A model generated the notes under the pieces. It worked only from the letters and a program-made list of their open reading frames with translations. It was not told the DNA's origin and made no database searches. A stretch of DNA of 64,000 nt from a virus. This document shows positions 1-60,375 of this stretch, one piece after another. Positions within the stretch are counted from its first letter, which is position 1, and every line of letters starts with the position of its first letter. The position numbers and the translations under genes are program-made. Location: the IMG/VR virus record IMGVR_UViG_3300028800_000097, positions 1-64,000 of that record, one strand, 5' to 3'.

Positions 1-49
1 GCGAATCCACCCTGATCGTCGTGAAAACCCCAACACATCCGAGGCGGCC

Positions 50-292
50 ATGAGCTTGTGGCGGTTCCGGGATGAGTGGCTCAAGCTACGGGCTAACGGC
101 GTCACTATGCGGAAGATTGCCACGTGCTATCGGGTTTCTCCACAGCGCGTCCACCAAATTACCGGCAATATGGGGCCGGTTCGCAAGGTTGTGTCTGAGC
201 CGGGCAAGAGACCGCCCTGGACCTTTCCCGGGCCCGAGCTGATCCGACTCGCCCACGAAGCCCGAGACGAGATCAGGGCGAACTGGCGCTAG
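50..292 (+). CDS. Small helix-turn-helix protein
   Basis: 80-aa protein. Residues about 10-38 form a compact helix-turn-helix (LKLRANGVTMRKIA followed by VSPQRVHQIT), the layout of sigma-70 region 4-like or resolvase-type HTH domains. A GAGG ribosome-binding sequence lies about 7 bases before the ATG. The rest is short and basic without a second domain. It probably binds DNA as a small phage regulator; the target is unknown. It is followed by a long gene-free region, so it may end an upstream operon lying outside the window. Confidence 0.7.
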   Translation: MSLWRFRDEWLKLRANGVTMRKIATCYRVSPQRVHQITGNMGPVRKVVSEPGKRPPWTFPGPELIRLAHEARDEIRANWR

Positions 293-485
293 CCTGGGCC
301 GAAGCCACCTTTTTGGCGGCCCCCTTAAGGGCCAAACTCCTTATCCAACAGCATGTCTTCCTCCATTGGCAGACGCAGGCACTTGGTAGCCTATATAGGT
401 TCAGACAGGGTAAACGCATAGGCCGTCTTCCCCGGCAGAACCTTGTCAGGGGAGTGGTGATGACGACCACACCCTCTCCCTCATA

Positions 486-3255: not shown

Positions 3256-3503
3256 GGCGAAACCTCCGCCACCGCGTCCCAGGTGCCTGCCCACGCGGCG
3301 CGCGTATAGGGAGGGACGATGTTGACAGGCAGCGTCCAGCGCGCCCGGCACGCCCATGCGTAGCCAGCGTCCAGCGCGTCTGTCTGACTGGTGAAGCTGG
3401 TTTCCAGCGTCCAGTCGCCGGTTGTGCGCCCTAGCCTAGCCTTGACGCGCGGAAAGAACTCGCCATTGCCGCGCCTGGTGCTGATCGTAACCCTGCCGCT
3501 CAT
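3252..3503 (-). CDS. Hypothetical protein
   Basis: 83-aa protein starting MSGRVTISTRRGNG. The ATG at 3503 is preferred over the one at 3518 because GGGAG lies 8 bases before it, inside the longer frame. Basic N-terminus, then an ordinary soluble sequence. No family recognised. One TGTTGACA site (3320-3327) lies inside the gene and another (3585-3592) upstream. Confidence 0.65.
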   Translation of the reverse strand: MSGRVTISTRRGNGEFFPRVKARLGRTTGDWTLETSFTSQTDALDAGYAWACRARWTLPVNIVPPYTRAAWAGTWDAVAEVSP

Positions 3504-3597
3504 TGTCACGTCTCCCATATGTGACGCGCGAGTCGCCCCGCGCGCCGTTGGTTGTCAGAGTGCGGCCATCGCCGCGCGATAGAGTGTTGACAGTGAA

Positions 3598-3819
3598 TCA
3601 GGCGCCGCGGACGGCGCGCGCGTTCCACCAGGGGTCAAACATGAAAGGCAGATCGTACCAGAGCTGACCGTCGATCTGAGAAGTAAAGCGGTTATGGTGG
3701 GCAGCAAATTCGCGAATGAAGCGGGCGGCATCAGGCGATGGCGCGACGTACAAGTCGCTTTCGTGATTATCTACCGTGCAACCGGCAGCGATAAGCGCTT
3801 GGTAAACCGTTAGGGCCAT
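3598..3819 (-). CDS. Conserved phage hypothetical protein
   Basis: 73-aa protein with the pattern HESDLYV, ARFIREF, FTSQIDGQLWYDLPFMFDPWW, a layout met in small phage and prophage proteins of Proteobacteria whose role is not established. No signal peptide or membrane helix. Part of the leftward early operon. Confidence 0.7.
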   Translation of the reverse strand: MALTVYQALIAAGCTVDNHESDLYVAPSPDAARFIREFAAHHNRFTSQIDGQLWYDLPFMFDPWWNARAVRGA

Positions 3820-3857
3820 TGGAGTGACTTTCAGTTGAGGTTTAGGGGGCGGGTGGA

Positions 3858-4085
3858 TCAGCGCGTCTTGGAAAGCGCGAAACCGGCGATCTTGGTCAGG
3901 CCGTGCGGCGTCTTAACCATCCGCTCTATCTTGGCCTGATTATCCGCATTGACTGCGGCGTGGAGCGATAGAACCGCGCTGGCGGTGAACTGGTCGACCA
4001 GCACAAGGCGCTTGTTGGAGCCGAACCGGAACTTAACTGGGGCCGCCCGCATCGCTTCAAGGGATGGCTCGCGAATGGCAAACAT
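3858..4085 (-). CDS. Hypothetical protein
   Basis: 75-aa basic protein (MFAIREPSLEAMRAAPVKFR). No motif recognised. It is the second gene of the operon read leftward from the 4.4-kb promoter. Confidence 0.65.
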   Translation of the reverse strand: MFAIREPSLEAMRAAPVKFRFGSNKRLVLVDQFTASAVLSLHAAVNADNQAKIERMVKTPHGLTKIAGFALSKTR

Positions 4086-4126
4086 TTTGGATATTCCTTC
4101 AGTGTTGGGGGTGTGGGGTTAGGCGG

Positions 4127-4363
4127 TTAGGACGCTATAGCGGCGCCAGGATGGTCCGCGTTTATGGCGGCAACGAAAGCGTCGCGCTTGGCTTTCGTCG
4201 GGAACACGCCAACCGTGCCGCTCTTCATGGGAAGCCGATGGACATGAGCCGGTGCGATCTCCCGCTCGCCGAATCCAGTCACGCCAAGCGGCGCCACCAC
4301 AAGCGGCCCCATGCGCAGTTCGCGAATAATGTCACGGGTAATTGTCGAATAGAACTTTGCCAT
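4127..4363 (-). CDS. Hypothetical protein, first gene of leftward operon
   Basis: 78-aa protein starting MAKFYSTITRDIIREL; the ATG at 4363 follows GAGGG by 9 bases. The C-terminus (FPTKAKRDAFVAAINADHPGA) resembles other small phage early proteins but no function is known. It lies directly downstream of the promoter and paired TGTTGACA operators at 4386-4428. Confidence 0.7.
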   Translation of the reverse strand: MAKFYSTITRDIIRELRMGPLVVAPLGVTGFGEREIAPAHVHRLPMKSGTVGVFPTKAKRDAFVAAINADHPGAAIAS

Positions 4364-4385
4364 CGGGTGTATCCCTCTCTCGTTC

Positions 4386-4428
4386 GGTGTTGACAGATAT
4401 AAGGGAACCAAACCTAACTGTCAACACC
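4386..4428 (-). promoter_or_regulatory. Leftward early promoter with paired operators
   Basis: An 11-bp perfect inverted repeat, GGTGTTGACAG (4386-4396) and CTGTCAACACC (4418-4428), is separated by 21 bases. Read on the minus strand it gives -35 TTGACA (4424-4419), a 17-base spacer and -10 TATATC (4403-4398). One operator half therefore covers the -35 box and the other the start-point region. It serves the operon beginning at 4363. Confidence 0.65.
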
Positions 4429-4453
4429 TAAATCGAGGGTGACGAAAGAAATA

Positions 4454-4482
4454 TTGACAGTTAGCCCGCCAGCGCCTACCTA
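4454..4482 (+). promoter_or_regulatory. Rightward early promoter candidate
   Basis: TTGACA at 4454-4459, a 17-base spacer and a weak -10 TACCTA at 4477-4482. The ATG at 4490 starts seven bases after the -10 box, so transcription would begin at or next to the start codon (leaderless mRNA). A TGTTGACA site overlaps that ATG. Confidence 0.4.
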
Positions 4483-4489
4483 TCTCGTC

Positions 4490-4714
4490 ATGTTGACAGA
4501 AAGAAAGTCACCTGGACCGACACCGAAAAGGCGCGTTATGACGCCATTCGGCCAGTTTGCCGGCATTCGCGAGGCATCGGACAGCATCGGGATGACCAGG
4601 CAAGGGATATGGATCAACTGTAAACGTGAGGTAGAAGGGTGGCGATTTCTAGATCCGTCGCCACTGTCAACACCCGAGTGGCTTACATGGAATGTAGAGG
4701 AAGCAGCGGAATGA
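4490..4714 (+). CDS. Small DNA-binding-like protein
   Basis: 74-aa basic protein MLTERKSPGPTPKRR followed by TPFGQFAGIREASDSIG, MTRQGIWINCK and GWRF. This is the short phage module in which a (T)P-hydrophobic-G-F start leads into a helix-turn-helix and a GW(R/K) turn. The ATG at 4490 is preferred to an upstream ATG-less extension because the promoter geometry places it at the mRNA start. It is likely an early regulator, divergent from the 4363 operon. Confidence 0.6.
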   Translation: MLTERKSPGPTPKRRVMTPFGQFAGIREASDSIGMTRQGIWINCKREVEGWRFLDPSPLSTPEWLTWNVEEAAE

Positions 4715-5061
4715 TTTCTCGCATCGGAAAGTGTCGCGCGTGCAAGCAGACCAGCCGCCGCGATTACACCCTCACTCGCCCCGTATCGGTCGGGTCTCAC
4801 GCCAATGGTGGGATGTACCGCCGCACAATCAACCAAGCCGGCCGCATGCTGCCCAATCAATGGCTGCCAGCCTCCGAGGATGGATGGTGCCCGAGCTGTG
4901 GTGAGCGCGCCTGGTCCGCGCAACGCATTGAAGGCTTCAAGGTCGACACCGTTCCGTGTGACTCTCGCTGCACCGAGGCAAAGGGCCACAAGTGCGACTG
5001 TTCATGTGGCGGCGCCAATCACGGAAAGGGCCATTTGGTCTGCGAGGCAATAGCGGCATGA
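4711..5061 (+). CDS. Cys-rich zinc-binding protein
   Basis: 116-aa protein with CRACKQ, CPSCGE, and a C-terminal C-x8-CDCSCGGANHGKGH block: three cysteine clusters suggesting two or three zinc sites. The last block is a recurring ending in small phage proteins of unknown role. The ATG overlaps the previous stop (ATGA), with AGAGGAAG upstream. Confidence 0.7.
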   Translation: MISRIGKCRACKQTSRRDYTLTRPVSVGSHANGGMYRRTINQAGRMLPNQWLPASEDGWCPSCGERAWSAQRIEGFKVDTVPCDSRCTEAKGHKCDCSCGGANHGKGHLVCEAIAA

Positions 5062-5123
5062 TCGAGCCCGCCCTATTCCTCGCCGTCGCGCTTTTGATCG
5101 TCTACCTGCAGCGGAACGCCTGA
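5058..5123 (+). CDS. 21-aa single-span membrane peptide
   Basis: Its ATG overlaps the stop of the zinc protein (ATGA). The product MIEPALFLAVALLIVYLQRN plus Ala is one hydrophobic helix with a basic end. Its last 51 bases lie antisense to the 3' end of the leftward gene 5073-5519. Too short for family assignment; the coupling and clean helix argue that it is translated. Confidence 0.4.
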   Translation: MIEPALFLAVALLIVYLQRNA

Positions 5124-5519
5124 AGCTTCCGTCTCTGGCACAACTCGCGGCAACTGCCGCGCACGAGCTCCCATAGCAGATCCAGGCCGCCGAGCCGCGC
5201 GAACCGCCGCCATTCGACCAGCAGCGCTCAAATGATGCGGCACAGCCCGCAATTCCGCCGCGTGCCGTTCCAGCTCCTCCGCCAACGCCAACCCAACCTC
5301 GCACTGCGATCGTATGTGTGCAGCAAACGCGTCAGCAGCCCACACAGGCACCCGACGCCCAGCCCTGCCCCACTTCGTCAGGGCATCATAACTCACCCGC
5401 CACCCCACTGTTGACACAAGCACACGGGCACGACCGGGATAGCCAGCTCGCGTCCAAGGCGCGATAAACGCCGCAACCCGATCGAATAAACTGTCAGAGT
5501 GTGTCGGGAGTAGCCGCAT
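5073..5519 (-). CDS. Possible regulator with HTH-like segment
   Basis: 148-aa basic protein starting MRLLPTHSDSLFDRVAAF. Residues 35-75 (VGWRVSYDALTKWGRAGRRVPVWAADAFAAHIRSQ) resemble Cro/YdaS-like domains in which a KW turn is followed by a VP-W helix. The C-terminus is Ala/Arg-rich. A TGTTGACA site (5409-5416) lies inside the gene. It is a candidate repressor for the site cluster; this is inference from position and the HTH-like segment only. Confidence 0.55.
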   Translation of the reverse strand: MRLLPTHSDSLFDRVAAFIAPWTRAGYPGRARVLVSTVGWRVSYDALTKWGRAGRRVPVWAADAFAAHIRSQCEVGLALAEELERHAAELRAVPHHLSAAGRMAAVRAARRPGSAMGARARQLPRVVPETEASGVPLQVDDQKRDGEE

Positions 5520-5946
5520 CAAACGAAGCGAGCGGACGGGGTGGCGCACCAATTCGCGTGCCGGCGCGTCTCTCGTGTGCAGCATGGGCGGGGTGTTTAC
5601 CCTTCTCCGGCGCCGCTGGAAAGCACGTATTTCAGCCGATTTGTCGTGGGCGCAATGCGGTTAGGCGGAACGCATGTCCGCCAACAATCGCTAATAAACG
5701 GCGATATTGCGCGGGTTTCCGCGTGACGGCGCGTGCCAGCATACACCAAGGCATACACCTCGCGCCCCTCGGGGGTGGTCCGGCTGCCCGGCGCCGGCCG
5801 CGGCCCCTGGTCACCACGCGAACTTTTGCCCAGGCGATGGGTCGCGAAAGTAGCTGATCACGGGGTGGTCACCCCCTCGGCCCCCCAGAAAATAAATTGT
5901 GGTGATTGCGGTGGCGCGCTGTTAAGACTTCCTGTAAACCTAACGC
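5520..5946. other. Intergenic region without a supported gene
   Basis: 427 bp with only short frames of improbable composition. It contains an inverted repeat GGGGTG-GT-CACCCC (5862-5875), GC palindromes near 5790, and two small AT-rich spots (about 5690-5700 and 5884-5900). It probably holds the promoter of the rightward operon starting at 5947, but no good -35/-10 pair was found. Confidence 0.5.
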
Positions 5947-6222
5947 ATGAAAGCGCCGAAATGCCGTTTGTGCGGCGTGGTTCACTGGGGCAGCGAGCCT
6001 CATGTGGGGGTTGTGGGGAGGGTTGGGCGAGGTCGGTCGCCTGTTGACAGTGAGTCTGTGGTGATTGCGCCTGGTGGTCGGAGGACGGATCGAGAGATTG
6101 TGGCGGCGATCCGTGAGTTGCTTGGGGAGCCTGTGCCTAAGAAGCCTGGGTTCGACCGAGTGGCGTATCAGCGGGAGTACATGCGGAAGCGTCGGGCTGC
6201 GGCGAAGGGCGGAGATGGGTGA
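5947..6222 (+). CDS. Small zinc-knuckle phage protein
   Basis: 91-aa protein. MKAPKCRLCGVVHWGSEPH gives a C-x2-C-x3-H-x5-H pattern, then a charged region and a basic C-terminus (FDRVAYQREYMRKRRAAAK) of a type common in alphaproteobacterial phage proteins. First gene of a long rightward run of overlapping small genes. A TGTTGACAG site lies inside it at 6042-6050. Confidence 0.7.
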   Translation: MKAPKCRLCGVVHWGSEPHVGVVGRVGRGRSPVDSESVVIAPGGRRTDREIVAAIRELLGEPVPKKPGFDRVAYQREYMRKRRAAAKGGDG

Positions 6223-18410: not shown

Positions 18411-19007
18411 ATGCCGAAGGTTGAGATCGACGAGGCCGAACTGCTTGCCAGCCAGCAGGTAGTTCACGCCGTCAACCAGATGATGGCTAACCCGAAGTCT
18501 CGCGCCATGCTTTTGCATGCACGCAAGACCGCCGATCCAGCCGCGTCGGTCCCCGAAGTAGACTCGATGATCCCGGTGGCGGGCGCCCTCGATCGCTTCG
18601 CTAAGCAGCTCGCCGAAGATAAGGCGGAGCGCGCCGCGGAGCGCGAAGCGGCGGCCAACGAGCGTCGGCTTGAGCAAGCCACGCGTGAGGTCGAGGGCGT
18701 CAAGTCGCGCCTGAAAGCCTCCGGCTGGACCGCCGACGGAATCGCCGCGGTCGAGAAGCTCGCCGAGGAACGTGGCATCTTCGACCTCGAAGCCGCCGCC
18801 GCGCTCCACGAGAAGATGAACCCGCCCCCGCCGCCGGCCGAGCCGAACGGCATGGGAAGCTGGGGCTTCTTTGAAGGCGCCGCCGACGAAGGCTCCGACA
18901 AGTTCGTCAAGTCGATGCTGGAAAGCGGCGGCGAGGACGAGGGCGCGCTCGGCCGCGAGGTACGCGCCGCACTCACCGACTACCGCAACGGCGTCAACGC
19001 GCGGTGA
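18411..19007 (+). CDS. Scaffolding protein candidate
   Basis: 198-aa, highly charged, helical protein: KQLAEDKAERAAEREAAANE and neighbours form a coiled coil (residues 65-105), followed by a Pro-rich linker and a C-terminal basic helix (LGREVRAALTDYRNGVNAR). Position immediately before the major capsid gene and composition are those of podovirus scaffolds; sequence alone does not prove it. Confidence 0.65.
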   Translation: MPKVEIDEAELLASQQVVHAVNQMMANPKSRAMLLHARKTADPAASVPEVDSMIPVAGALDRFAKQLAEDKAERAAEREAAANERRLEQATREVEGVKSRLKASGWTADGIAAVEKLAEERGIFDLEAAAALHEKMNPPPPPAEPNGMGSWGFFEGAADEGSDKFVKSMLESGGEDEGALGREVRAALTDYRNGVNAR

Positions 19008-19039
19008 TCACCACCAACTCAAGACAAGGAAACGAGTAA

Positions 19040-20092
19040 ATGCCCCTTCCAGGGATCGGCGTAGCGCCCTCAGGGGGCCTTTACAACGAACTCACGGCCG
19101 TCACGAGGCGTGCTTTTGTCCGCAGACTTTTCGTACAAATATACTTTGCCAGCCCTTCTTTGTTTTACTTATGGGGTAATGCACAACGCGCTGCTGGTGG
19201 TCTAAATCAGGTCACTATACCAATGCAGGGCAACAGTATGGTGCAAGGATCATTTACAAATTACGGAGGCGGATTTAATTCACCCGTGGTGACGCCAGGC
19301 ATCCAGAACGGCCAGTTCAACCTCGCGTATTGGGTTGTGCCGATCCCGCTGCCGTTCGGCGAGCGGATCATCCAGGCGACCGACGTCGAGATTTCGCTGC
19401 TGAAAGCGCGCATGAACGACGCGTACGCTGTGACGAGGCAGAATATTGCCAGATTGCTCTACACGAACAACTCGGCGCTGCCGAACTACCCCGATAGCTT
19501 CATCAACGCCTTCGACGATGGGACGAACGTCCCGACGTATGGCGGCATCAACCGAACAGCGGCGGGCAACGCGGCGTTCAAGGGCCAGTATATCAACGTC
19601 GGCGGCGGGACGTCGTGGAACACGAATTTCACCACATCCACGTTGGGCTTCAGCCGGGCGGCAATGTCATCGCTGCTGATGAAGATCACCGACACGGCCG
19701 GCGGCGAAGCGCCGACATTCGGCGTGATGAACCCGGCCGATCTGGCGACCCTGAACAACAACTTCATCGGGGTCGAGAACCAGTACGTGATGCCGGGCCG
19801 GAACTACACGATGGACACGCCGATCCGGTCGAGCTTCCCGAACGTGAACGTGGCCGGCGTGCCGATCTTCGCGGACCACTTCGTGCCGGTTGGGAACGCG
19901 TTCTTCTCGAACGTCAAGTATACGAATTTGTACCTGAGCGAGGACGCCGCGATGGACTTCTCCGGCTTCTACTCGCTGGTGCCGCTTGGTCAGATCGGGC
20001 AGCAGGGTATCGTGGTGCTTGGATACGACTTGGTGTCGGCGAAATCCTCCTCCGGAGCCTGGGTCTACGGCTTTGGCGGGGCGGCTTACTGA
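19040..20092 (+). CDS. Major capsid protein
   Basis: 350-aa protein of the size of HK97-fold capsid subunits. It has a helical N-terminus, PFGERIIQATDVEISLLKARMND (spine-helix type), a central Gly-rich beta region and VPLGQIGQQGIVVLGYDLVSA near the end. Located directly after the scaffold candidate. A patch near the 5' end (about 19110-19290) is poor in GC (24 of 60 for 19201-19260, against 36 of 60 for 19741-19800) with rare codons, frame intact. Confidence 0.82.
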   Translation: MPLPGIGVAPSGGLYNELTAVTRRAFVRRLFVQIYFASPSLFYLWGNAQRAAGGLNQVTIPMQGNSMVQGSFTNYGGGFNSPVVTPGIQNGQFNLAYWVVPIPLPFGERIIQATDVEISLLKARMNDAYAVTRQNIARLLYTNNSALPNYPDSFINAFDDGTNVPTYGGINRTAAGNAAFKGQYINVGGGTSWNTNFTTSTLGFSRAAMSSLLMKITDTAGGEAPTFGVMNPADLATLNNNFIGVENQYVMPGRNYTMDTPIRSSFPNVNVAGVPIFADHFVPVGNAFFSNVKYTNLYLSEDAAMDFSGFYSLVPLGQIGQQGIVVLGYDLVSAKSSSGAWVYGFGGAAY

Positions 20093-27058: not shown

Positions 27059-27396
27059 TGGCAATCGCAGACCTATTCAACGTGCCGGACACAGATGCTG
27101 CAATGCAGCAATGGTCGTTCGCGCACATGGCGCATCACCGCGACATGATCAGGGTGGTCAAGCAGACTCTGAACGTCGAACTGACGGAGTTCATCCTTGA
27201 CCCTGTGAACCTTCGTGACCCGGCCACCTTCCTCGACCAGCACCAGATCATGCACCAGCAGATGGACGCGCTGTTCAACATCTCAGGGTTCGATTTGACC
27301 GAGGTGAACTGGAACGACACCAGCCAGCGATCGGCCTGGATTTGGCAGAACGCGCAGTTACATCTCCTGGAAGCGACCGCGACGGGGGTTTTCTGA
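27058..27396 (+). CDS. Hypothetical virion-region protein
   Basis: 112-aa helical protein MAIADLFNVPDTDAAMQQWS with many His, Gln and Met. TGATG overlap with the adhesin-like gene. No family recognised; a small virion component is likely from position. Confidence 0.6.
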   Translation: MAIADLFNVPDTDAAMQQWSFAHMAHHRDMIRVVKQTLNVELTEFILDPVNLRDPATFLDQHQIMHQQMDALFNISGFDLTEVNWNDTSQRSAWIWQNAQLHLLEATATGVF

Positions 27397-27450
27397 GAAT
27401 GTTTCGCGCTGTGACACAATGCGGTATAGGCTGCGCCCCGGAGGCACAAC

Positions 27451-27942
27451 ATGCGGGCAACTGAACGAGTGGCTGACCAGAAGGCGCCAATCGCGCATAC
27501 GGGGCACCGTGTTACCCGAGCTGATCTCGATGAGCTTCGCCCGTGGGTCGAATCGCGGCTGACGGAGAAGTTCCCGCACAAGGCATCGTTCGCGATCTTC
27601 GGGTGGCTGGTCGGGTGCATGACGCAGAACGACATGCTGTTCGTTCGCGCCGGTAGCGGCATCGCCCTGGTGCAGTTGCACAAGTCGTTCCTGTCCAAGT
27701 TCCCCTGGTGCGAAACGGTGTTCGTGCTGGCCAAGCAGGGCTTCGTGGCCGACGCCTCGGGCATCTTCCAAAACATCTACGACTGGGCCGAGCGCGAGCG
27801 CTGCACGCACTTGGTGATCGACGAGAAGCACTGCGACGTGGAGCGAGCCGACATTGCGATGGAGATCGGGTCTCCAAAGCGTGTTCCAACGTCGGTGGTG
27901 TTCTTCCCGCTCCACCATGCGCAGGACACGACCGATGTCTGA
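27451..27942 (+). CDS. Hypothetical protein, GNAT-like spacing
   Basis: 163-aa alpha/beta protein: FPHKASFAIFGWLVGCMTQN, VFVLAKQGFVADASGIFQNI and ERCTHLVIDEKHCDVERADI. The strand-helix order recalls small phage acetyltransferase-like proteins, but no acetyl-CoA pyrophosphate loop (Q/RxxGxG/A) can be seen, so no enzyme is claimed. A GGAGG precedes the ATG by 7 bases. Confidence 0.6.
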   Translation: MRATERVADQKAPIAHTGHRVTRADLDELRPWVESRLTEKFPHKASFAIFGWLVGCMTQNDMLFVRAGSGIALVQLHKSFLSKFPWCETVFVLAKQGFVADASGIFQNIYDWAERERCTHLVIDEKHCDVERADIAMEIGSPKRVPTSVVFFPLHHAQDTTDV

Positions 27943-53347: not shown

Positions 53348-53545
53348 ATGCCGATCGCTGAAAAAATACGGCATGTGGTCGACAAAGCTGGCGGGTCAAC
53401 GAAGCTGGCTTATGCCCTCGGCCTCCGTCCGCCAGCCATCTATGGGTGGACGCGCGTCCCCAGCCGCTTTGTGGATAAAGTGAGCGAACTGACCGGCATT
53501 CCCCCGCAGGAGTTGCGGCCGGACCTGTACCCGCCTCATTCATGA
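53348..53545 (+). CDS. Cro/YdaS-like regulator
   Basis: 65-aa protein: residues 15-50 (GGSTKLAYALGLRPPAIYGW) are the helix-turn-helix, followed by TRVPSRFVDKVSELTGIPPQ as in Cro/YdaS-type proteins, where a P-x-W stretch and RVP turn come next. AAGAGG stands 8 bases before the ATG. It probably binds the palindrome at 53304-53316 and controls the divergent transcripts. Confidence 0.75.
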   Translation: MPIAEKIRHVVDKAGGSTKLAYALGLRPPAIYGWTRVPSRFVDKVSELTGIPPQELRPDLYPPHS

Positions 53546-54942
53546 ATGATCCCTCGGTCCAGCTCGGGCTCTGCCCATGCGGCGCACCGGGCGCCCTGTT
53601 CAGCCCCGGCCGTGACACGATCACCGGCCCTGGGGGCATCCTGGTAATGCGCGGCCAGCCAGCCCGCGCTACGTGCATTCCATGTTGGAACGCGCTGGCA
53701 CACCCCGTCGCGCCTAGGTTACGCCCCATACCCGGTGTCCCTGGTTACTCAGCAGATTCGGACGGTAACATCGTGGGGCGCTATCAGCGCCCGATGGCCA
53801 CCAAGCTAACCCCATCCGGGTATCCTTTCGTTACTGTGCGGGTCAACGGCAAAAAGTTCTGCAAGCCAGTTCACTGGTTTGTTTGCTTGGCGTGGCACGG
53901 AGCGAAGCCTTCGGCGCTCCACGAAGTGGCCCACCGCCAGCCGCCCAAGACCAATACACGCCCCGACAATTTGCGGTGGGCCACCAAGCAAGAAAACGTA
54001 GACGACTCAATTAAACAGAATCTGATGAGCCACGGCGAGGCGCATTTCTTTGCCAAGTTACGCGAGCAAGATGTGCGAGAGATCAGACGCCTGCGTGCTT
54101 CAGGCGTGACGCTTTCTTCCATCGGATCAATGTTCGGTGTCGCCGAGTCCACCGTCCACAAAATCGTTTATCGGAAAGCCTGGAGACACTTGGATGAAGG
54201 AGATACGCACATGGTTGAACGGGTGAGGTCGGCGACGACAGCGGTGAGCGCCGGGTATAACGGCCCTGACAAGCCTAAATTCAACGACGGCCTGGCCGAA
54301 TACACGGAGGTAAGGTTTCAGCAGATGCGCTGGGCCGCCAAGGCATCGGCGTTCAAGGCGCGGTGGGAACGAAAAGGCGGCGCATTCGAGGACATCCAAT
54401 ACGGGTTTGCGCAGGGAAAGCTGACCCGCGAGGAGCGTGTTGCCAAAATCAGCGCTCGCGCTCGCGTCGACGGGTGGATGGGCACTGTCACGGTGCAGGA
54501 CGACGGGCAGACCAGCTTTGCGGTCACATTCGATCAAGCCGCCCCGGATGAACTCGGCGCCGGGGGCGCCCCGCTCGGTAGCCGCCTGTCTTTGGCCCGT
54601 GCTCAAGCAGAAGGATATAACACGGGGCGCCACGGCGGCTCGTTGGCGGACTGTGAGTTCCCTGCCGAAAGCGAGGAAGCCCACATTTGGGCGGAGGGCT
54701 ACGGCGATGGAATGCGCGATCGGGTCGAGAAGGAACCGAAGCCTCCCAGGGCCAACGGCGAGGCGAAGTCAGCCACTCAGGTCATGGCCGAACTCGCCGC
54801 ATCCATGCCGGTAGACAGCGGCCGGGTGAAGCCGGAACGCAAGATGGCCGCGGCGAACGATGAGGCTGAGCCTGCGGTCGAGAGGCCGGCAAAGAGGGGC
54901 GCCAGGCAGAAGGCCGCGGAGGGCAACGGCGCTGTCGACTGA
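53542..54942 (+). CDS. Zinc knuckle-HNH endonuclease-RMF-like fusion
   Basis: One open frame of 466 aa with three parts. Residues 1-55: LCPCGAPG and CIPCWNA, a zinc-knuckle-like start. Residues about 60-220: a homing-type HNH endonuclease, NUMOD4-like (PIPGVPGYSADSDGNIVGRY), HNH_3 core (HEVAHRQPPKTNTRPDNLRW) and a C-terminal HTH (LREQDVREIRRLRASGVTLS). Residues 224-466: a second protein with its own ATG and Shine-Dalgarno (54211). No stop separates them. ATG at 53542 overlaps the Cro-like stop. GC drops within the HNH part (28 of 60 for 54001-54060). Confidence 0.75.
   Translation: MNDPSVQLGLCPCGAPGALFSPGRDTITGPGGILVMRGQPARATCIPCWNALAHPVAPRLRPIPGVPGYSADSDGNIVGRYQRPMATKLTPSGYPFVTVRVNGKKFCKPVHWFVCLAWHGAKPSALHEVAHRQPPKTNTRPDNLRWATKQENVDDSIKQNLMSHGEAHFFAKLREQDVREIRRLRASGVTLSSIGSMFGVAESTVHKIVYRKAWRHLDEGDTHMVERVRSATTAVSAGYNGPDKPKFNDGLAEYTEVRFQQMRWAAKASAFKARWERKGGAFEDIQYGFAQGKLTREERVAKISARARVDGWMGTVTVQDDGQTSFAVTFDQAAPDELGAGGAPLGSRLSLARAQAEGYNTGRHGGSLADCEFPAESEEAHIWAEGYGDGMRDRVEKEPKPPRANGEAKSATQVMAELAASMPVDSGRVKPERKMAAANDEAEPAVERPAKRGARQKAAEGNGAVD
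54211..54942 (+). CDS. RMF-like phage protein (internal start)
   Basis: 243-aa protein if ATG 54211 is used, with AAGGAG 8 bases ahead; MVERVRSATTAVSAGYNGPD. The section ARAQAEGYNTGRHGGSLADC followed by AEGYGDGMRD resembles the ribosome-modulation-factor-like (Rmf) motif carried by many alphaproteobacterial phage proteins. Lys/Ala-rich C-terminus. It may be the original early gene behind which the HNH gene has fused; nested within 53542-54942. Confidence 0.5.
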   Translation: MVERVRSATTAVSAGYNGPDKPKFNDGLAEYTEVRFQQMRWAAKASAFKARWERKGGAFEDIQYGFAQGKLTREERVAKISARARVDGWMGTVTVQDDGQTSFAVTFDQAAPDELGAGGAPLGSRLSLARAQAEGYNTGRHGGSLADCEFPAESEEAHIWAEGYGDGMRDRVEKEPKPPRANGEAKSATQVMAELAASMPVDSGRVKPERKMAAANDEAEPAVERPAKRGARQKAAEGNGAVD

Positions 54943-56535: not shown

Positions 56536-56600
56536 CATTAAGGGCGTTTTGCTTACTGTGTCAACATCTTGTTGACAATCGACGACACATTTAATATGGT
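56536..56600. promoter_or_regulatory. Divergent promoters over a palindromic operator
   Basis: Perfect palindrome TGTCAACA-TCT-TGTTGACA at 56559-56577. Its right half is the -35 (TTGACA, 56572-56577) of a rightward promoter with 17-base spacer and -10 TATGGT (56595-56600). Its left half read leftward is the -35 of a promoter with 17-base spacer and -10 TTAATG (56541-56536). One bound repressor would block both. The right promoter ends seven bases before ATG 56608. Confidence 0.68.
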
Positions 56601-56607
56601 CATAGGC

Positions 56608-56757
56608 ATGGCAAAGGATGAACGCATAGCCGTGCGGCTAGATACTGCCACAAAGCTCGCGCTGGCTAAAGCCGCCGCTGAGGACAAGCGATCGCTGTCG
56701 TCGATGGCAGAAAAGCTTATTTCCGAGGGACTCAAGAGCGGAAAGGGCAAACGGTGA
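56608..56757 (+). CDS. Ribbon-helix-helix (Arc/CopG-like) regulator
   Basis: 49-aa protein MAKDERIAVRLDTATKLALA then KAAAEDKRSLSSMAEKLISE. The RIAVRLD beta strand plus two helices is the Arc/CopG ribbon-helix-helix fold. It is placed directly under the palindrome at 56559-56577, and dimers of this family bind such inverted repeats, so self-control is likely. An in-frame ATG at 56596 is possible but lies inside the -10. Confidence 0.72.
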   Translation: MAKDERIAVRLDTATKLALAKAAAEDKRSLSSMAEKLISEGLKSGKGKR

Positions 56758-58389: not shown

Positions 58390-59872
58390 CGAGGCACCGC
58401 CGTTCGGCATAGGCGCTCCGTTGCCGCCAGCGAATCTGGACGCGGAGATGGGTCTGTTAGGCGGCCTCCTGGCTCGCAACGATGAGTTGCACCGCATTGG
58501 CGCTGTGCTGGACGCCGAAGCGTTCTACGACCCCGCCAACGGTAAGCTGTTCACGCTGATAGCTGAAGAGATTCGTGCTGGTCGGCGCTGCGACGCGGTG
58601 ACGCTGAAGGTGCGGCTACAGAACAGCGGGATGCTGGATGAGGTCGGCGGCACGGCCTACCTGTCGAAGCTTCTCGCCTCGATGGTGGCCCCTGGTCTGA
58701 CGCCAGAATACGCGAGCGCGGTCCGCGACGCATGGCTGCGTCGGCGGCTGGCGGAAGCGGCGGCCGACCTGCACCATTTGGCTCATGGCGCCGATCCTGA
58801 GAAGGACGGCGAGGCAGTTCTGAGTGAAACGCTGGCGTCGTTGAGCGGCTTGGCGGCGGCGTCGGGATCAGCGCTGCATGGCGTTATGTCGATCGGAGAC
58901 GCCGCCAGACGCGCGATCGAGGGCTACGAGGCGGTCCACCGGGGCGATCCTTCACCGGCCCTGCTGTCTGGATTCGCTCCGGTCGACAACGCGCTTGGCG
59001 GCTTCATGCCGGGTCATCTCGTGATCCTCGGCGGTCGCTCGCGTATGGGGAAAACGGCCTTGGCACAGCAGCTATCCGAGGGCGTGGCGGGGCGCCTCGC
59101 CGCCTCTGGCGGGTATGTGCTGATGTTCTCGCAGGAGATGCCATCGGTGGAGCTTGGCGGGCGCGCTGTGGCCGCTGCTACGGGGTTCGATGCCAACACG
59201 CTTGGCCGCGGCGAGTTCGGGCTGCACACGGCGGAAGGACTGATCGCGGCACAGAAGCACCTTGACGGGGTCCCCCTGCTGATTTGCGACACGAGCGGCT
59301 TGACCGCCGACGAACTGGTCCTAACCACGCAATCGCTGAAGGCGCGCTATCCGATCCGGCTGGTGGTCATCGACCACTTGCAGAAGATGCGGCTGGGGAA
59401 GAACGCTGACCGCCTCGGGACGGCCTACGCGATCGGGCAGACCACCTCGGCGCTGAAAGACGCGGCGAAGCGGCTGAACGTCGCTGTGCTGCTCCTGGCC
59501 CAACTTGGGCGCGAGGTGGATCGGCGACCTGATCCACGGCCGATGCTGTCCGACCTGGCCTATGCTGGCGAGGCGGACGCGGACACGGTGGCGTTGCTGT
59601 GGCGTCCGGAGCTTTACCATCCGGCATCGGCGCCGGAGCACAGCGGGAAAGAAACCGAGGAATCTTGGTCTAAGAGGGTCGATGCGTGGAACCGGCGGCG
59701 TGATGAGATACGCGGGAAAGCGGAAGTCGTGATCGCTAAGAGAAGAGGCGGATCGGAAAGCACGGTGACCTTGGCATTCTCGGGCGCCACGAGTTCCTTT
59801 TCGGTTCCAGGCATCCAATACGGCAATCAGCCCGACGATCGCGGGCAGTGGTGGGAGGACGCAGCACAGTGA
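58379..59872 (+). CDS. dnaB: DnaB-like replicative helicase
   Basis: 497-aa helicase. N-terminal helical domain NLDAEMGLLGGLLARNDELH typical of DnaB, linker, then RecA-type core: Walker A LGGRSRMGKTALAQQLSEG near residues 215-230, Walker B LVVIDHLQKM near 328-337, and later DPRPMLSDLAYAGEADADTV with a late VTLAF. The MTase at 59869 overlaps its stop by GTGA. It would unwind the fork as a hexamer. Confidence 0.88.
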   Translation: MPRDEAPPFGIGAPLPPANLDAEMGLLGGLLARNDELHRIGAVLDAEAFYDPANGKLFTLIAEEIRAGRRCDAVTLKVRLQNSGMLDEVGGTAYLSKLLASMVAPGLTPEYASAVRDAWLRRRLAEAAADLHHLAHGADPEKDGEAVLSETLASLSGLAAASGSALHGVMSIGDAARRAIEGYEAVHRGDPSPALLSGFAPVDNALGGFMPGHLVILGGRSRMGKTALAQQLSEGVAGRLAASGGYVLMFSQEMPSVELGGRAVAAATGFDANTLGRGEFGLHTAEGLIAAQKHLDGVPLLICDTSGLTADELVLTTQSLKARYPIRLVVIDHLQKMRLGKNADRLGTAYAIGQTTSALKDAAKRLNVAVLLLAQLGREVDRRPDPRPMLSDLAYAGEADADTVALLWRPELYHPASAPEHSGKETEESWSKRVDAWNRRRDEIRGKAEVVIAKRRGGSESTVTLAFSGATSSFSVPGIQYGNQPDDRGQWWEDAAQ

Positions 59873-60375
59873 ACCAGCCCGACTTACTGAAAGGCATTGC
59901 TGACCCGCACCAGAGCAGGCTGCATCCCGAGGATGCAAAGTTCGCAATTGGCAACGGCAGCGATGGCAAGCACTACTGGATCACCCCGCCGGAATTGTTT
60001 GCCGAGTTGCACGCAGAGTTCTCATTCACTTTCGACCCTTGTCCGTGGCCGGTTCCACATGGTTTTGATGGCCTGACGTGCGAATGGGGTGAATCGAACT
60101 ACGTTAACCCGCCATTTGGCTCGATCATGCATCAGGGAAAGAAGAAAGGTCCGACAGCTTGGGTACGCAAAGCGATTGCTGAGCAGCAGGCCGGCAAGCG
60201 TGTCGTGCTGGTCTATCCGGTGGACAAGTGGGTGCTCATGCTTCTGAAGGCCGGCGCCCGGGTTCGCAACCTTGGCGACGTGCGCTGGCTGGCGACTGAA
60301 GATGGAACGGCCGGCAAAGGGACGGGGCGGCATATCGCATGCTTCGTGTTGGAACCCGAGGACGCAGCACAGTGA
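59869..60375 (+). CDS. Phage N6-adenine methyltransferase (Dam-like) 2
   Basis: 168-aa protein with GTG start overlapping the helicase stop. HYWITPPELFAELHAEFSFT and DPCPWP form the family N-terminus, SNYVNPPFGSIMHQGKKKGP carries the NPPF catalytic motif near residue 79, and GKRVVLVYPVDKW the central strand. Distinct from copy 1 on the other strand (NPPY). Confidence 0.78.
   Translation: MNQPDLLKGIADPHQSRLHPEDAKFAIGNGSDGKHYWITPPELFAELHAEFSFTFDPCPWPVPHGFDGLTCEWGESNYVNPPFGSIMHQGKKKGPTAWVRKAIAEQQAGKRVVLVYPVDKWVLMLLKAGARVRNLGDVRWLATEDGTAGKGTGRHIACFVLEPEDAAQ

What the first reader, a model, noticed from the sequence alone, without database searches (positions are those of the whole stretch)
3320..6050. 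Eight TGTTGACA sites in 2.7 kb: a dispersed operator family
Exact 8-mers at 3320, 3585, 4388, 4419, 4491, 4665, 5409 and 6042 (plus two at 56.56 kb) far exceed chance, and most are followed by G. Several lie within genes away from any start. They contain TTGACA, so some serve as -35 boxes, but those without a -10 partner suggest repressor binding sites, similar in idea to L5 stoperators. In the leftward operon the three internal or upstream sites all point the same way.
Basis: partly seen in the sequence, partly recalled or inferred. Interest (0 to 1): 0.6.

Follow-up and report, generated by a model that had tools for sequence, protein, structure and literature searches.

The report
Dispersed phage operator family, binder unknown
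A bacterial virus with no close known relatives carries one exact 8-letter DNA word eight times in 2.7 kb of its early-gene region and twice more at a regulator gene, most likely landing sites for one of its own regulatory proteins; this is a known kind of arrangement, seen here with a new sequence in an uncharacterised virus.

Summary
TGTTGACA occurs 10 times in the record: eight between 3320 and 6049, two at 56.56 kb. Shuffles give 1.3 per window; a local model gives 0.07 for the cluster. It is the most significantly clustered 8-mer of the genome. Coding does not explain it: synonymous shuffling predicts 0.09 sites inside the genes, 5 are found. Two to four sites form -35 boxes (clear: TTGACA-17-TATATC leftward at 4424-4396; TTGACA-17-TATGGT rightward at 56572-56600, directly before a leaderless-looking ribbon-helix-helix gene). 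Five sites (3320, 3585, 4665, 5409, 6042) have no -10 box. Best reading: operators of a phage-encoded repressor of the early region. Which protein binds is not shown. The Arc-like protein at 56608 is my first candidate (perfect inverted pair, 11 bp apart, in its promoter), but the isolated sites lack a partner half-site. Stoperator action is untested; polarity is only 5 of 7. The record is a complete, circularly permuted genome (319-bp end overlap, ~64.4 kb) with no integrase found. Structural-gene relatives lack the word, but their early genes are unrelated, so they test nothing. New member of a known kind.

The parts
3320..3327 (+). TGTTGACA site inside leftward gene 3518-3252, no -10 partner
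3585..3592 (+). TGTTGACA site in the gap between leftward genes 3819-3598 and 3518-3252, no -10 partner
4388..4395 (+). TGTTGACA site at the likely start point of the leftward promoter; in one arm (4372-4399) of a 28-nt imperfect inverted repeat with 4415-4442
4419..4426 (-). TGTTGACA site that forms the -35 box of the leftward promoter
4396..4424 (-). leftward early promoter TTGACA-17-TATATC, flanked by the two inverted sites (39 bp outer span, 31 bp centre to centre)
   Evidence: sequence
4452..4459 (+). one-mismatch site TATTGACA(GTTAG), possible -35 of the gene at 4490; shares TTGACAGTTAG with 4419-
4491..4498 (+). TGTTGACA site overlapping the ATG of gene 4490-4714
4490..4714 (+). 74-aa protein, candidate regulator by position only; no homologue, weak sub-threshold DUF6835 match, poor fold model
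4665..4672 (-). TGTTGACA site inside gene 4490-4714, no -10 partner
5073..5585 (-). 170-aa protein with weak HTH evidence (phrog_2745 E 0.009; distant homologues in two relatives; low-confidence model resembling XRE HTH domains)
5409..5416 (+). TGTTGACA site inside gene 5585-5073, no -10 partner
6042..6049 (+). TGTTGACA site inside gene 5947-6222, no -10 partner
56559..56577 (.). perfect inverted pair TGTCAACA-TCT-TGTTGACA, 11 bp centre to centre, holding the -35 boxes of two diverging promoters (the leftward one less certain)
56572..56600 (+). rightward promoter TTGACA-17-TATGGT; predicted start about 56607, directly before the ATG at 56608 (leaderless-looking, no Shine-Dalgarno)
56608..56757 (+). 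49-aa Arc-like ribbon-helix-helix protein, first candidate for the binder

Best explanation
The ten TGTTGACA words are binding sites (operators) of one sequence-specific regulator, most likely encoded by the phage, that represses the early region. At the leftward early promoter two inverted sites cover the -35 box and the start point; at 56.56 kb an inverted pair covers the -35 boxes of two diverging promoters, one of them that of the Arc-like protein 56608, which would give autoregulation. The isolated sites inside or between early genes would add to repression, by roadblock or by cooperative or looping contacts with the promoter sites. Shown: sites, significance, not coding-driven, overlap with promoter-like elements, RHH gene beside the inverted pair. 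Inferred: that a protein binds them, that it is a repressor, that it is phage-encoded. Guessed: which protein (56608 about 0.4, 4490 about 0.2, 5073 about 0.15, host factor or other about 0.25) and what the isolated sites do.
For: Strong clustering of one exact word. Intragenic sites against synonymous expectation 5 to 0.09, in two codon phases and different peptides. Promoter-overlapping sites with good -10 boxes at 17 bp (4419-, 56572+) and none at the five isolated sites. Inverted arrangement at both promoter regions. RHH protein at 56608 (phrog_3431 Arc-like, E 4e-7; 4.6e-8) with the pair in its promoter at 11-bp spacing; RelB, an RHH protein, recognises [A/T]TGT[A/C]A hexads in adjacent inverted half-sites (PMC2812701). 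In two unrelated viral groups the same inverted pair TGTCAACA-N3-TGTTGACA lies just upstream of XRE-type regulator genes (L005/L009 and L011), so a regulator may use this word.
Against: No binding data. No relative with the same early region, so no conservation test. The isolated sites have no second half-site within 16 bp, which a typical RHH tetramer would want. The two nearest RHH homologues in 385 alphaproteobacterial genomes have no TGTNNACA within their ~3-kb loci. No integrase found in a complete genome, so a lysogeny repressor is not implied.
Confidence: 0.62

Rival explanations
1. Stoperators in the strict sense: an L5-type monomeric repressor binds each asymmetric site and also blocks elongation in a polar way.
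For: Five sites lie in transcribed DNA without a -10; the site is asymmetric on its 3' side (G 7/10, A/T 9/10); CTGTCAA on the other strand is shared with the L5 consensus as I recall it; 5 of 7 sites in transcribed DNA have the same polarity relative to transcription.
Against: 5 of 7 is not significant (P about 0.23). No L5-repressor homologue found by sequence or fold, with poor models. Ten sites in two clusters rather than 20-30 across the genome (PMC6550527).
Confidence: 0.15
2. Strong host-type -35 boxes and spurious copies: the word is enriched because early promoters use it, with no dedicated binder.
For: TTGACA is the sigma-70 -35 consensus; 2-4 sites have a -10 at 16-17 bp. Virus G034 uses GGTGTTGACA as the apparent -35 of about 20 promoters.
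Against: Five of ten sites have 1-2 of 6 matches to a -10; the fixed TG before TTGACA is not needed for a -35; of 9 TTGACA in 3.3-6.1 kb, 8 carry TG.
Confidence: 0.12
3. Sites for a host regulator (for instance of the GntR/FCD type) that the phage uses or responds to.
For: In Caballeronia pedi a chromosomal GntR-like regulator gene has 7 TGTTGACA sites around it, including a pair of the same 39-bp geometry.
Against: Host unknown; no reason for intragenic host operators in phage genes; the phage has its own regulator candidates.
Confidence: 0.07
4. Replication-origin iterons or another structural DNA role.
For: In relatives G002, G016 and G006 the top clustered words are iteron-like arrays, in G002 next to a primase/VirE-like gene.
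Against: Sites are dispersed over 2.7 kb and a second place about 11 kb away, coincide with promoters, and are not in a tight array near the DnaB gene.
Confidence: 0.04

Closest known systems
L5/cluster A mycobacteriophage operators and stoperators
   Same: one short asymmetric word repeated at promoters and within or between genes; overlaps a -35; core CTGTCAA on one strand (L5 consensus from memory)
   Different: 8-mer rather than 13-mer, 10 sites in two clusters, polarity not established, no L5-type repressor found
SP-beta SPBRE / MrpR master repressor
   Same: repeated short element at many phage promoters, predicted in silico long before the binder was known (PMC10516654)
   Different: 15-bp element in promoter regions; MrpR has a tyrosine-recombinase fold, and no such protein was seen here
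Arc/Mnt and RelB ribbon-helix-helix operators
   Same: 56559-56577 is an inverted TGTCA-type pair about one helical turn apart in front of an RHH gene
   Different: the sites in the 3.3-6.0 kb cluster have no adjacent second half-site, which RHH tetramers normally use
Phage P1 C1 operators
   Same: asymmetric operators dispersed over the genome (from general knowledge, not tested)
   Different: other, longer sequence (from general knowledge); no C1 homologue seen

Membership tests
L5-type stoperator immunity system | repressor homologous to L5 gp71 (N-terminal HTH plus stoperator domain) | tested here: inconclusive
   no PHROG, Pfam, PDB-sequence or fold match of that kind for the candidates; models are of low confidence
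L5-type stoperator immunity system | 20-30 binding sites spread through the genome | tested here: not met
   10 exact sites in two clusters; almost no excess of one-mismatch sites
L5-type stoperator immunity system | sites oriented with transcription | tested here: inconclusive
   5 of 7 sites in transcribed DNA agree (3320, 3585, 4388, 4665, 5409; not 4491, 6042); from coordinates
L5-type stoperator immunity system | bound repressor blocks elongation | not testable with these tools
   needs transcription assays
Arc-like ribbon-helix-helix repressor (gene 56608) | RHH sequence profile | tested here: met
   phrog_3431 E 4e-7, 4.6e-8; Pfam RHH_5 23.5 bits, just under its 26-bit cut-off
Arc-like ribbon-helix-helix repressor (gene 56608) | paired half-sites about one turn apart at its operators | tested here: inconclusive
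   met at 56559/56570 (11 bp) but at none of the other eight sites; whether 56608 binds those eight is unknown
Temperate phage immunity region | integrase or other prophage maintenance gene in the genome | tested here: inconclusive
   no tyrosine or serine recombinase match although the genome is complete; partition and transposase genes were not searched
Dispersed phage operator family (general kind) | one word repeated beyond chance at promoters and elsewhere in early genes | tested here: met
Dispersed phage operator family (general kind) | a phage protein binds the word | not testable with these tools
   needs EMSA, DAP-seq or ChIP

The most novel reading that the evidence does not exclude
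A single small phage regulator reads an asymmetric 8-10 bp word at promoters and at isolated intragenic sites, repressing both initiation and elongation in a phage lineage unrelated to the mycobacteriophages and without a found integrase: an independently evolved stoperator-like system, possibly built on a ribbon-helix-helix protein.
Probability: 0.1. Interest if true: 0.65.

Novelty: new member of a known kind. Interest (0 to 1): 0.38.

Why it matters
If the sites are operators of one phage protein, this gives an entry point into the gene control of a group of ~65-kb phages for which no characterised member was found, and a testable case of intragenic operators outside the mycobacteriophages. 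If the isolated sites block elongation, stoperators would have arisen more than once.

Tried and rejected
Relatives by terminase, DnaB and the 4490 protein: single-sequence scans found nothing, or only a distant helicase relative. A three-sequence terminase profile gave 80 relatives, but the six read in full share structural genes and only a weak HTH homologue in the early region; TGTTGACA counts in those six are 0-3 per record. The closest (G001, 81% capsid identity) ends before the early region, so it cannot test the matter. Pair-pattern scans gave 12 viral and 13 bacterial loci, the bacterial number being about what chance gives. Virus G034, with 23 sites and the same 39-bp pair geometry, looked like a relative but shares no gene and uses the word as the apparent -35 of many promoters. 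A Caballeronia cluster looked like a prophage but is a chromosomal locus with a GntR-like regulator. Structure models of 4490 and 5073 were too poor to decide function; fold searches with 5073 list weak XRE-type HTH matches, and no L5-type repressor was among the listed matches. Cryptic half-sites next to isolated sites: none. No phage or plasmid homologue of 4490 or 5073, and no phage homologue of 56608 (one chance-level hit for 4490).

Full report
What is there. TGTTGACA occurs at all ten stated places. The count is 10 against 1.3 expected per 64 kb, and 8 in 2.7 kb against 0.07 from a local first-order model of 3.0-6.3 kb. Among all 8-mers of this genome it is the most significantly clustered; only GC-rich low-complexity words reach similar raw densities. 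There is almost no excess of one-mismatch variants: 48 matches against 34.5 expected, including the ten exact ones. So the signal is the exact word plus one near-copy in the cluster, TATTGACA at 4452.

It is not a by-product of coding. Five sites lie in or at the start of predicted genes (3320, 4491, 4665, 5409, 6042). They fall in two codon phases on both strands and lie over PVNI, MLTE, LSTP, VSTV and PVDS. Shuffling synonymous codons predicts 0.09 such sites in these genes. Flanks outside the 8-mer differ, so the sites were not spread by duplication of larger units. Only the 3' side carries weak extra signal (G in 7 of 10, then A or T in 9 of 10). The 5' side does not mirror this, so the site looks asymmetric rather than part of a longer palindrome.

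Relation to promoters. A clear leftward promoter TTGACA-17-TATATC lies at 4424-4396, with its -35 inside site 4419 and site 4388 at the likely start point. These two sites lie in a 28-nt imperfect inverted repeat. At 56559-56577 there is a perfect inverted pair TGTCAACA-TCT-TGTTGACA. Its right copy is the -35 of TTGACA-17-TATGGT, whose start point would fall directly before the ATG at 56608; its left copy may be the -35 of a leftward promoter (TTGACA-16-CTTAAT). The start of 56608 has no evident Shine-Dalgarno sequence, so the mRNA may be leaderless; this is inference. The gene at 4490 may be similar (TTGACA at 4454, but the -10 is weak). The five other sites have only 1-2 of 6 matches to a -10 at any allowed spacing, so they are unlikely to be promoters.

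Who could bind. The protein at 56608-56757 is a 49-aa Arc-like ribbon-helix-helix protein. The half-site spacing of 11 bp in its own promoter suits RHH proteins: RelB reads [A/T]TGT[A/C]A hexads in adjacent inverted half-sites (PMC2812701); that Arc half-sites are also about 11 bp apart is from general knowledge. Against it, none of the eight other sites has a second half-site within 16 bp. The protein at 5073-5585 has weak HTH evidence: phrog_2745 at E 0.009, distant homologues in two relatives, and a low-confidence model with XRE-like HTH matches. The protein at 4490 has no informative match and a poor model. I therefore commit to a phage-encoded repressor, with 56608 first, but only at about 0.4.

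Stoperators. The polarity of sites in transcribed DNA is 5 of 7 in one sense (3320, 3585, 4388, 4665, 5409 against 4491, 6042), which chance gives with probability about 0.23. Cluster A mycobacteriophages have 20-30 sites oriented with transcription (PMC6550527) and a two-domain monomeric repressor (PMC9283540); neither was found here. 'Works like' is possible; 'is a member' is not supported.

Relatives. The record is a complete circularly permuted genome: its first and last 319 bp agree with 3 mismatches, so the unit is about 64.4 kb, and the two clusters are about 11 kb apart across the join. No tyrosine or serine integrase was found. Relatives found through the terminase share capsid and terminase (capsid 72-81% identical in those nearest) but not the early genes, apart from a weak HTH homologue of 5073, and the six read in full have 0-3 copies of the word. 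The closest, G001, lacks the early region altogether. The relatives thus neither support nor refute. Other sequences show that the same word can be a regulator site: the inverted pair lies upstream of XRE-type regulator genes in L005/L009 and L011. It can also be a plain -35 element (G034). In a Caballeronia genome a locus with a GntR-like regulator has seven copies.

Verdict. Real, significant and most likely functional; an operator family of a known kind with an unknown binder. The stoperator claim and the repressor's identity remain open.

Noticed in passing
window 1-319 and the record's last 319 bp (64414-64732): Direct terminal overlap with 3 mismatches: the record is a complete, circularly permuted genome; the mismatches suggest a mixed population.
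   Followed up: yes
L109 around 18850-20000 (G005 58850-60000): GGGGAGAGTTATGA repeated at the starts of four consecutive minus-strand genes (with a near-copy at a fifth): a start-associated sequence combining ribosome-binding site and start codon.
   Followed up: partly
L133 / G034 whole record: About 20 copies of GGTGTTGACA-N17/18-TAGYGT: a dispersed promoter family, three of them paired with an inverted copy in a 39-bp unit.
   Followed up: partly
L123 end (G016 27186-27472), L119 16422-16615 (G002), L112 9992-10170 (G006): Iteron-like arrays (GGTGCAACA, ATGACGACC, ACCTGTAAG), the one in G002 beside a primase/VirE-like gene: probable replication origins of relatives; no such array was seen in the window.
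   Followed up: partly
window 53542-54942: 466-aa protein with HNH_3 endonuclease, HTH_38-like and ribosome-modulation-factor-like (PF04957, just below cut-off) stretches: an odd domain combination.
   Followed up: no
window about 5899-5911 and 6057-6069: 13-bp direct repeat TGTGGTGATTGCG, the second copy just downstream of site 6042.
   Followed up: no
G046:C52 34311-41089 (Caballeronia pedi, NZ_FCOE02000046.1): Seven TGTTGACA sites around a GntR-like regulator gene: likely regulon of that regulator.
   Followed up: partly
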